Shown: piece after piece, positions 4,298 through 6,267 of the stretch
Numbering within the stretch: position 1 is the stretch's first letter
Layout of the letters: each line of letters starts with the position of its first letter
From: Clostridia bacterium
GTDB lineage: Bacteria > Bacillota > Clostridia > Lutisporales > Lutisporaceae
Reading direction: 5' to 3'
NCBI GenBank assembly: GCA_035628995.1
Contig: DASPIR010000025.1
Span: forward strand, 1 to 46,192
DNA length: 46,192 bases
Notes under the pieces: generated by a model
Told to the model about the DNA's origin: nothing
What the model saw: only the letters and a program-made list of their open reading frames with translations
The model's database searches: none
Made by a program: the position numbers and the translations under genes

Positions 4298-4765
4298 TTG
4301 ATGTTTAAAGAAATGAGAAGACAGGATAGAAAGATAGATAATTCAGAAGCGATACGTGTACTAGAGGCCGGTCAATACGGCATACTCTCTACCACAGGCA
4401 GTGATGGCTATGCATACGGTATACCCATTAGTTATACATATAGTAATGACAGCATATACTTCCACTGTGCCGTGGAAGGGCAAAAGCTGGAGAATATAAA
4501 GCACAGCAACAAGGTATCCTTCTGCGTAGTAGGAGAGACAACTCCTCTACCCCAAAGCTTCAGTGTGAATTACGAAAGCGTAATAATATTCGGCAAGGCC
4601 GTTGAGATATTTGAAAGCGAAAAGCAGGCAGCTCTGGAAGCTATAGTTGCAAAGTACTCTGCAGCTTTCACAAAAGAGGGCTTGGAGTATATAAAGAAGT
4701 CTTCCGGTGATACCAGGTTGTTTAAAATAGAAATAGAAAATATTACCGGTAAAGCACGAAGGTAG
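4298..4765 (+). CDS. pyridoxamine 5'-phosphate oxidase family flavoprotein (NimA-like)
   Basis: The 155-residue protein has the split-barrel FMN-binding fold of the pyridoxamine-phosphate-oxidase-like group. The typical start is seen (MFKEMRRQDRKI, then YGILSTTGSDGYAYGIPISY), followed by YFHCAVEGQKLENIKHSNKVSFCVVGE, which is the flavin-binding strand-turn region of NimA and related proteins. Family members include nitroimidazole reductases and proteins of unknown substrate. The start codon follows AAAGAGGAGATG. It ends only 29 bp before the start of hgcA, so the three genes may share a transcript. Whether it has any part in mercury methylation is unknown. Confidence 0.88.
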   Translation: MMFKEMRRQDRKIDNSEAIRVLEAGQYGILSTTGSDGYAYGIPISYTYSNDSIYFHCAVEGQKLENIKHSNKVSFCVVGETTPLPQSFSVNYESVIIFGKAVEIFESEKQAALEAIVAKYSAAFTKEGLEYIKKSSGDTRLFKIEIENITGKARR

Positions 4766-4794
4766 TTAAAATCAGCTGTTGGGAGGTATGTGCT

Positions 4795-5958
4795 ATGACA
4801 GAAGTAAAAAAGCAAAACTGCTGAGATACTTCACAGCAAGCAGTTGGGTCCAACTGCTCAGCAACCATGGAAAATGCATACGATTATTTAAAGGTCTTGG
4901 AGCCCGCACCTGATTGGATAGTTGGGTACATAGAGACTCCTATTGCTAAGATTCCGATAATAAGCACAGCACTTAGTTCGACTGACAAGGCAGGCACGAT
5001 AAAAATAAGGCTTGGTATCGGCAGGGATAACTATAAAGTACCGCCCGGTATATATGCCGTCGGCAAGCCTGACAATACCTCTCCCATACTGGTTACAGCC
5101 AACTACAAGCTTACCTTTGACAGTCTGAGATGTGAGCTGACCGGTCTAAATGCCTGGATTGCAGTCGTTGACACCAAAGGTATAAACGTGTGGTGTGCAG
5201 CAGGAAAAGGTACTTTTGGCACCACAGAGCTGTCGGGCAGGATAAGCGCCTTGAGATTGGGGAGGCTTGTAACACACAATGTGCTGATACTTCCGCAGCT
5301 TGCCGCACCCGGAGTAGCCGCTCAGGTCGTGTTCAGGTTATGCGGCTTCAGAGTTGTATACGGTCCTGTAAGAGCAAGTGACATAAAAGAGTTTCTAAGT
5401 AATGGAATGAAAGCAACTGTAGAAATGAGAAAGGTAAGCTTTGGGCTTAAGGAGAGAGTTATACTCACTCCGATAGAACTGGTGCATAGCATAAAACCCA
5501 TGCTGTTGATATTTCTTGCATTGCTTGCACTCAATCTCATAGTTGGAAAACATCCATCCATATCCACAGCAGCTTATACGGCGTTCCTGAATTTCATACC
5601 ATACCTAGCAGCTTTCCTAATTGGCTGTGTTGTCGTGCCGGTGCTGCTTCCCTGGATACCCTTCCGTTCCTTTGCGTTGAAAGGTCTATTGGTGGGATTG
5701 CTACCGGCAGTTTATGCACTGCTTTATCCTGAGGTCTTCGGATATTATAGCGCCAGCTGGCTTATCAGAACCGCTTACATGCTTATTATACCGGTGGTTG
5801 CTTCCTTCCTGAGCTTAAGTTTTACAGGCTCAACCACCTATACCTCCTTATCGGGGGTAAAAAGGGAAATGAACTATGCACTTAAGCCTTATATTGCAGC
5901 TGTGGCATTAGGACTGATATTTTTAGCCACAGACAGCATAATACGGCTGCTGTATTGA
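4795..5958 (+). CDS. hgcA: mercury methylation corrinoid protein HgcA, putative selenoprotein
   Basis: HgcA transfers a methyl group from its corrinoid cofactor to Hg(II), producing methylmercury at the cell membrane. The cap-helix motif NVWCAAGK is at residues 131-138, where Cys134 is the expected cobalt ligand. It is followed by GTFGTTEL and a C-terminal part with about five membrane helices. I start at ATG 4795, which has GGGAGG 8 nt upstream. The first unbroken ATG (4867) has no ribosome site. The longer frame contains one in-frame UGA at codon 10 (4822-4824), directly after Cys9, and the following hairpin fits a SECIS, so I read codon 10 as selenocysteine. The product is then 387 aa and begins MTEVKKQNCU. 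The alternatives are a sequencing error in a Cys codon, or translation from 4867 giving 363 aa. HgcA identity is certain; Sec is an inference. Confidence 0.96.
4822..4858 (+). other. UGA codon and candidate bacterial SECIS hairpin in hgcA
   Basis: The in-frame TGA is at 4822-4824. After 14 nt, a perfect inverted repeat spans 4839-4858 (arms AGCAGTTGG and CCAACTGCT). Folded, it gives 8 bp and a GGUC tetraloop, with the first loop G 23 nt after the UGA. The distance and the GGU in the loop resemble the E. coli fdhF SECIS, whose loop G and U are read by SelB. The stem lacks the bulged U of fdhF. The bases also encode protein in the hgcA frame. Confidence 0.75.
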
Positions 5959-5970
5959 TGAGGTATTGTT

Positions 5971-6267
5971 ATGGAGCATAAATATATCAAAAATGTTTCC
6001 ACTCTAAAGCTTGATAGTGAAAAATGCATAGGCTGCGGCGTGTGTGTAGATGTATGCCCGCACCAGCTGCTTGTCATGAATAATGGCAAGGCAGCCGCCA
6101 TAGACATTGATATGTGCATGGAATGCGGTGCCTGTGCGAAAAATTGCCCCGCTTCAGCCATATCAGTGGAATGCGGTGTAGGCTGTGCAATAGCTATATT
6201 GAACGGACTTTTCAGGAAAAGCAGTCCTACCTGCGAATCTGGCAGAAAAGGCAAGGGCTGCTGCTAA
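5971..6267 (+). CDS. hgcB: mercury methylation ferredoxin HgcB
   Basis: HgcB is the ferredoxin partner that keeps the HgcA corrinoid reduced and is thought to hand over mercury through cysteines. The 98-aa protein has two [4Fe-4S] motifs: C19-x2-C22-x2-C25-x3-C29-P and C49-x2-C52-x2-C55-x3-C59-P. It also has the HgcB-specific ECGVGCA segment (C68, C72) and the hallmark C-terminal Cys pair (C97-C98). The start ATG at 5971 is 12 bp after the hgcA stop, in the usual hgcA-hgcB order. The gene is complete. Just downstream lies a 104-bp palindromic element that may stabilise or end the transcript. Confidence 0.96.
   Translation: MEHKYIKNVSTLKLDSEKCIGCGVCVDVCPHQLLVMNNGKAAAIDIDMCMECGACAKNCPASAISVECGVGCAIAILNGLFRKSSPTCESGRKGKGCC

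What the first reader, a model, noticed from the sequence alone, without database searches (positions are those of the whole stretch)
4795..4869. HgcA appears to be a selenoprotein with an N-terminal Cys-Sec pair
Seen: the hgcA frame extends 24 codons upstream of its first apparent ATG (4867) to ATG 4795, which has GGGAGG at 8 nt; 4867 has no ribosome site. The only interruption is UGA at codon 10 (4822-4824), right after Cys9. Fourteen nt later a perfect inverted repeat (4839-4858) folds into an 8-bp stem with a GGUC loop. The first loop G is 23 nt from the UGA, close to the geometry and loop of the E. coli fdhF SECIS. Known: bacterial Sec insertion needs UGA plus such a hairpin, and Cys-Sec dyads occur in redox and metal-binding proteins. 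Inferred: Sec has replaced the second Cys of an N-terminal Cys pair that I recall being common in HgcA proteins. A selenol binds Hg(II) far more tightly than a thiol, so it could bind mercury or shape delivery to the corrinoid. I know of no described selenocysteine HgcA.
Basis: partly seen in the sequence, partly recalled or inferred. Interest (0 to 1): 0.94.

Follow-up and report, generated by a model that had tools for sequence, protein, structure and literature searches.

The report
Selenocysteine HgcA, mercury-methylating protein

Summary
hgcA extends upstream to ATG 4795 (GGGAGG 8 nt before it), with one in-frame TGA (4822-4824) after Cys9 and a perfect 8-bp hairpin with GGUC loop at 4839-4858. 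The protein is HgcA by curated model, followed by hgcB. The genome has selA, selB, selD (itself with an in-frame TGA) and a tRNA-Sec. Ten further distinct HgcA genes, in Bacillota and delta-type genomes, have the same Cys-TGA; the TGA aligns with a Cys of the N-terminal Cys pair of other HgcAs. A positioned bSECIS-type hairpin follows the TGA in all 11 (10 at p<=0.03 against shuffles, the eleventh with one bulge), but in only 3 of 57 Cys-Cys homologues. So UGA is very probably read as Sec. The claim of novelty fails: a 2026 review lists HgcA (NF040863) as a selenoprotein with motif CU, citing Haft & Gwadz 2023, and HgcB (GVGU) too. What Sec does is untested. The model puts it on a flexible tail, compatible with binding Hg(II) and passing it to HgcB cysteines or the corrinoid. 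Many HgcAs lack the tail, so it is accessory. Verdict: real, mostly already explained, new member of a known selenoprotein family.

The parts
4781..4786 (+). Shine-Dalgarno-like GGGAGG, 8 nt before ATG 4795
   Evidence: Sequence; no such site before ATG 4867.
4795..5958 (+). hgcA, 387 codons with UGA read as Sec at codon 10, stop included
   Evidence: NCBIfam NF040863 HgcA_corrinoid 422.9 bits against a cut-off of 275; NVWCAAGK corrinoid motif; alignment A1.
4819..4824 (+). Cys9-Sec10 (TGC TGA)
   Evidence: Column 10 is Cys or Sec in all 17 aligned HgcAs, which were chosen for having an N-terminal Cys-Cys or Cys-Sec; same Cys-TGA in 10 other distinct loci.
4839..4858 (+). bSECIS-type hairpin, 8 bp, loop GGUC, loop 22 nt after the UGA
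   Evidence: 0 of 200 shuffles as stable under the bSECIS model; positioned hairpins in all 11 Sec genes and in 3 of 57 Cys homologues.
4867..4869 (+). internal ATG, the start that ordinary gene calling would choose; probably not the true start
   Evidence: No ribosome-binding site; relatives conserve the upstream start and Cys pair.
5971..6267 (+). hgcB, 2x[4Fe-4S] ferredoxin with GVGC and C-terminal Cys-Cys (both Cys here, not Sec)
   Evidence: NF040864 115.5 bits against a cut-off of 99.

Best explanation
hgcA of this genome encodes a selenoprotein. SelB with tRNA-Sec, directed by the hairpin at 4839-4858, decodes UGA 4822-4824 as selenocysteine (supported by comparative sequence, not by protein data). 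The product is ordinary HgcA (corrinoid domain plus membrane domain) with a flexible N-terminal tail whose Cys-Cys has Cys-Sec in its place. Inferred: the tail's thiol/selenol pair binds Hg(II) and passes it between the cytosol, the HgcB cysteines and the corrinoid; Sec raises metal affinity and ligand-exchange rate. It tunes the reaction rather than forming the methyl-transfer site, which is the Co-ligating Cys of the NVWC motif (Cys134 here). The confidence given is for Sec insertion in HgcA; for the Hg(II)-handling role of the pair I would give about 0.5.
For: HgcA and HgcB identity over curated cut-offs. selB 372 bits, selA ORF beside it, selD with in-frame TGA in an SSGUAAK motif, tRNA-Sec 70.5 bits with anticodon TCA. 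Same Cys-TGA in 11 distinct HgcA genes; SECIS-type hairpin at p<=0.03 in 10 of 11 (eleventh with one bulge) against 3 of 57 Cys homologues, Mann-Whitney 4e-6 (that run also counted L131 as Sec, a false positive with an ordinary CC further on, which weakens the contrast rather than making it). Stem sequences differ between distant lineages while loop type and spacing are kept. Sec aligns with the second Cys of the N-terminal pair. selB in 10 of 11 Sec-hgcA genomes. hgcB follows hgcA in all Sec loci. Tail residues 1-27 have pLDDT under 50, i.e. probably flexible. The literature predicts the same motif CU in HgcA.
Against: No protein-level evidence. selB is also present in 15 of 19 genomes with non-Sec HgcA, so its presence alone does not discriminate. 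One Sec-HgcA genome (L084, MAG of 2.6 Mb) gave no selB. Many HgcAs (e.g. Desulfosporosinus) lack the Cys-pair tail altogether, so the pair is not essential to the family. Nothing here tests Hg binding.
Confidence: 0.93

Rival explanations
1. UGA 4822 is a true stop; translation of functional HgcA starts at ATG 4867 (internal start or re-initiation after a nine-codon leader), giving a short-tailed HgcA like that of Desulfosporosinus.
For: The conserved core lies wholly downstream of 4867; tail-less HgcAs exist.
Against: No ribosome site at 4867; Cys-TGA plus positioned SECIS-type hairpin in 11 genes and not in Cys homologues; tail start and Cys pair aligned; Sec machinery present.
Confidence: 0.05
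2. TGA is a sequencing or assembly error for TGC or TGT (Cys).
For: Most homologues with a tail have Cys-Cys at this place.
Against: Same TGA in ten other distinct genes from other assemblies, each with its own SECIS-type hairpin.
Confidence: 0.01
3. Sec is inserted, but the Cys-Sec pair serves redox protection or thiol/disulfide regulation of HgcAB rather than Hg(II) binding.
For: Adjacent Cys-Sec pairs occur in redox proteins, and HgcAB chemistry needs strongly reducing conditions (both background knowledge, not tested here).
Against: The pair sits in a mercury-handling system whose HgcB cysteines 73, 94 and 95 are needed for activity (PMC11588087); no redox partner gene was seen beside it.
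Confidence: 0.3

Closest known systems
Sec-containing HgcA, motif CU (NF040863; Haft & Gwadz 2023, listed in PMC13188914 with WP_250697417.1)
   Same: Same family model and same CU motif; the review describes the method as UGA-containing extensions of unexpectedly truncated proteins, which fits this case.
   Different: Nothing found that sets this member apart; the original 2023 paper could not be read here. HgcB next door is all-Cys, whereas the review also lists a Sec HgcB.
Cys-Cys HgcA (e.g. Acetivibrio mesophilus, L044/L058)
   Same: Core, membrane domain, NVWCAAGK, adjacent hgcB, Cys-rich N-terminal tail.
   Different: Cys instead of Sec; Cys homologues as a group have no SECIS-type hairpin beyond chance.
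Sec-containing HgcB, motif GVGU
   Same: Same operon type, also UGA plus SECIS-type hairpin; seen in 7 loci.
   Different: Other protein and position; Cys in this window.

Membership tests
HgcA (NF040863) | Curated model above cut-off | tested here: met
   422.9 bits against 275
HgcA (NF040863) | N(V/I)WCA(A/G)GK cap-helix motif with Co-ligating Cys | tested here: met
   NVWCAAGK, Cys134, invariant in A1
HgcA (NF040863) | Adjacent hgcB | tested here: met
   NF040864 at 5971-6267
HgcA (NF040863) | Methylates mercury | not testable with these tools
   No assay
Bacterial selenoprotein | In-frame UGA aligned with conserved Cys of homologues | tested here: met
   A1 column of residue 10
Bacterial selenoprotein | bSECIS: hairpin loop 16-37 nt past UGA, small loop with G in first two positions (model quoted from PMC13188914) | tested here: met
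   22 nt, loop GGUC, 0 of 200 shuffles as stable
Bacterial selenoprotein | selA, selB, selC, selD in the genome | tested here: met
   (selA recognised from its ORF beside selB, not scored with a model)
Bacterial selenoprotein | Se found in the protein | not testable with these tools
   Needs mass spectrometry or 75Se
Sec-HgcA of Haft & Gwadz 2023 | CU motif in HgcA | tested here: met
   Motif CU in the review table; the 2023 paper itself was not held

The most novel reading that the evidence does not exclude
The Cys-Sec tail is a dedicated Hg(II)-loading arm of HgcA, and Sec and Cys have exchanged there several times (Bacillota and delta-type bacteria), sometimes together with Sec in HgcB, so that a subset of mercury methylators depends on selenium for the methylation pathway itself.
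Probability: 0.3. Interest if true: 0.65.

Novelty: new member of a known kind. Interest (0 to 1): 0.38.

Why it matters
HgcA makes the neurotoxin methylmercury. A selenol on it would tie mercury methylation to selenium supply in some bacteria and gives a direct, testable place for the well-known Hg-Se interaction. Gene callers that stop at UGA truncate these proteins and hide the pair. The family has been predicted already; this analysis adds a control-based SECIS test, eleven distinct Sec genes in a sample of about 100 HgcAs, and evidence that Sec and non-Sec forms changed at least three times on the tree.

Tried and rejected
The general folding z-score does not single out the hairpin, so it was replaced by a bSECIS-model test with shuffles and Cys homologues as control. 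L131 first looked like a Sec-HgcA, but its CU is upstream noise and its real tail has CC; counted as Cys. L068's CU lies upstream of its start and was excluded. HgcB C-terminal TGAs in some loci (e.g. L011, L031, L014) were considered as hidden Sec, but may be ordinary stops; not pursued. Haft & Gwadz 2023 and Haft & Tolstoy 2025 are not in the library, so their member lists could not be compared. The 2008 GOS paper, also cited in the review for HgcA, does not name it in the searched main text. An order-wide search only repeated the family-wide one, as the order holds the same 22 genomes.

Full report
Observation. The sequence is as described: GGGAGG at 4781-4786, ATG 4795, Cys TGC 4819-4821, TGA 4822-4824, then a perfect 8-bp inverted repeat with loop GGUC at 4839-4858, and an open frame to 5958. 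The first apparent start, ATG 4867, has no ribosome site. The fold is -12.7 kcal/mol.

Identity. The protein is HgcA by NCBIfam NF040863 (422.9 bits, cut-off 275) and the next gene is HgcB by NF040864 (115.5, cut-off 99).

Sec machinery. The genome has selB (372.5 bits) with a selA ORF just upstream, selD (393 bits) with an in-frame TGA of its own in SSGUAAK, and a tRNA-Sec (Rfam RF01852 70.5 bits; ARAGORN tRNA-SeC with anticodon TCA).

Relatives. A scan of species genomes and searches by family model gave about 100 distinct HgcAs. Reading upstream through TGA shows that most have CC or CCC near the N-terminus, some have no such tail, and 11 distinct genes including this one have Cys-TGA: window (L009), L011, L022, L034 (Anaeromonas frigoriresistens), L056, L070, L084 (Syntrophaceae), L091, L093, L130, L134. 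In a protein alignment of 17 HgcAs chosen for such tails the Sec column is Cys or Sec throughout. hgcB follows hgcA in all Sec loci.

SECIS test with control. Using one model for all, a hairpin in the right place and with G in the loop was found at p<=0.03 in 10 of the 11 Sec genes (loops GGUC, UGA, GGU, GGA, AGGU, GGA, AGGU, AGUU, UGUA, UGA); L134 has one with a bulge and loop GUU. In 57 Cys-Cys homologues, cut at the codon of the first CC pair, 3 reached p<=0.05, the number expected by chance. The stems differ in sequence between distant lineages while position and loop type are kept. I take this as strong evidence for function as SECIS. The same test applied to HgcB found seven loci with GVGU, all with a hairpin at p<=0.04, against 3 of 78 for GVGC; in the window HgcB has Cys.

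Distribution. selB is present in 10 of 11 Sec-HgcA genomes; the exception is a MAG of 2.6 Mb. It is also present in 15 of 19 genomes with non-Sec HgcA, so the machinery permits but does not imply Sec. On a quick tree of 99 HgcA cores, Sec against non-Sec needs 4 changes, at least 3 forced by well-supported branches; the direction of change cannot be told, and some Sec rows are long branches. Most Sec genes lie among divergent Bacillota HgcAs, and one pair lies among delta-type bacteria.

Mechanism. Supported by comparison: UGA decoded as Sec, in a tail that AlphaFold leaves without confident structure (residues 1-27, pLDDT under 50). From the literature: Cys93 of HgcA (the NVWC Cys; Cys134 here) ligates Co, and Cys73, Cys94 and Cys95 of HgcB are needed for methylation (PMC11588087). 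Inferred: the mobile Cys-Sec pair captures Hg(II) or exchanges it with the HgcB cysteines, with Sec giving tighter and faster-exchanging binding; a redox or protective role is the chief rival. The pair is accessory, as many HgcAs lack it.

Comparison with what is known. PMC13188914 (May 2026) lists 'Mercury methylation corrinoid protein HgcA, NF040863, CU, WP_250697417.1' and 'HgcB, NF040864, GVGU' among prokaryotic selenoproteins, citing Haft & Gwadz 2023 (J Bacteriol 205:e00259-22). PMC11588087 also says that hgcA and hgcB homologues may be selenoproteins. The 2023 paper is not held. The finding is therefore right about the biology and wrong about being undescribed: a new member of a known, predicted selenoprotein family for which I found no experimental test.

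Noticed in passing
L011, L034, L060, L070, L130, L131, L132 (hgcB): HgcB with in-frame TGA in GVGU, each followed by a SECIS-type hairpin (related GCUCAC...GUGAGC stems); in L011, L034, L070 and L130 both HgcA and HgcB carry Sec, in L060, L131 and L132 only HgcB does.
   Followed up: partly
L105 (genome contig C21, about 84085-85005): selD of this genome is itself a Sec gene (SSGUAAK), close to selA-selB.
   Followed up: partly
window 4298-4765: Gene just upstream of hgcA encodes a pyridoxamine-oxidase-like flavoprotein resembling Nim nitroimidazole reductases (124.8 bits, below the cut-off of 260).
   Followed up: no
same genus as the window, G001-G005: None of the five genus relatives held has a full HgcA, though several are incomplete, so hgcAB looks patchy within the genus; gain by transfer or loss is not resolved.
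   Followed up: no
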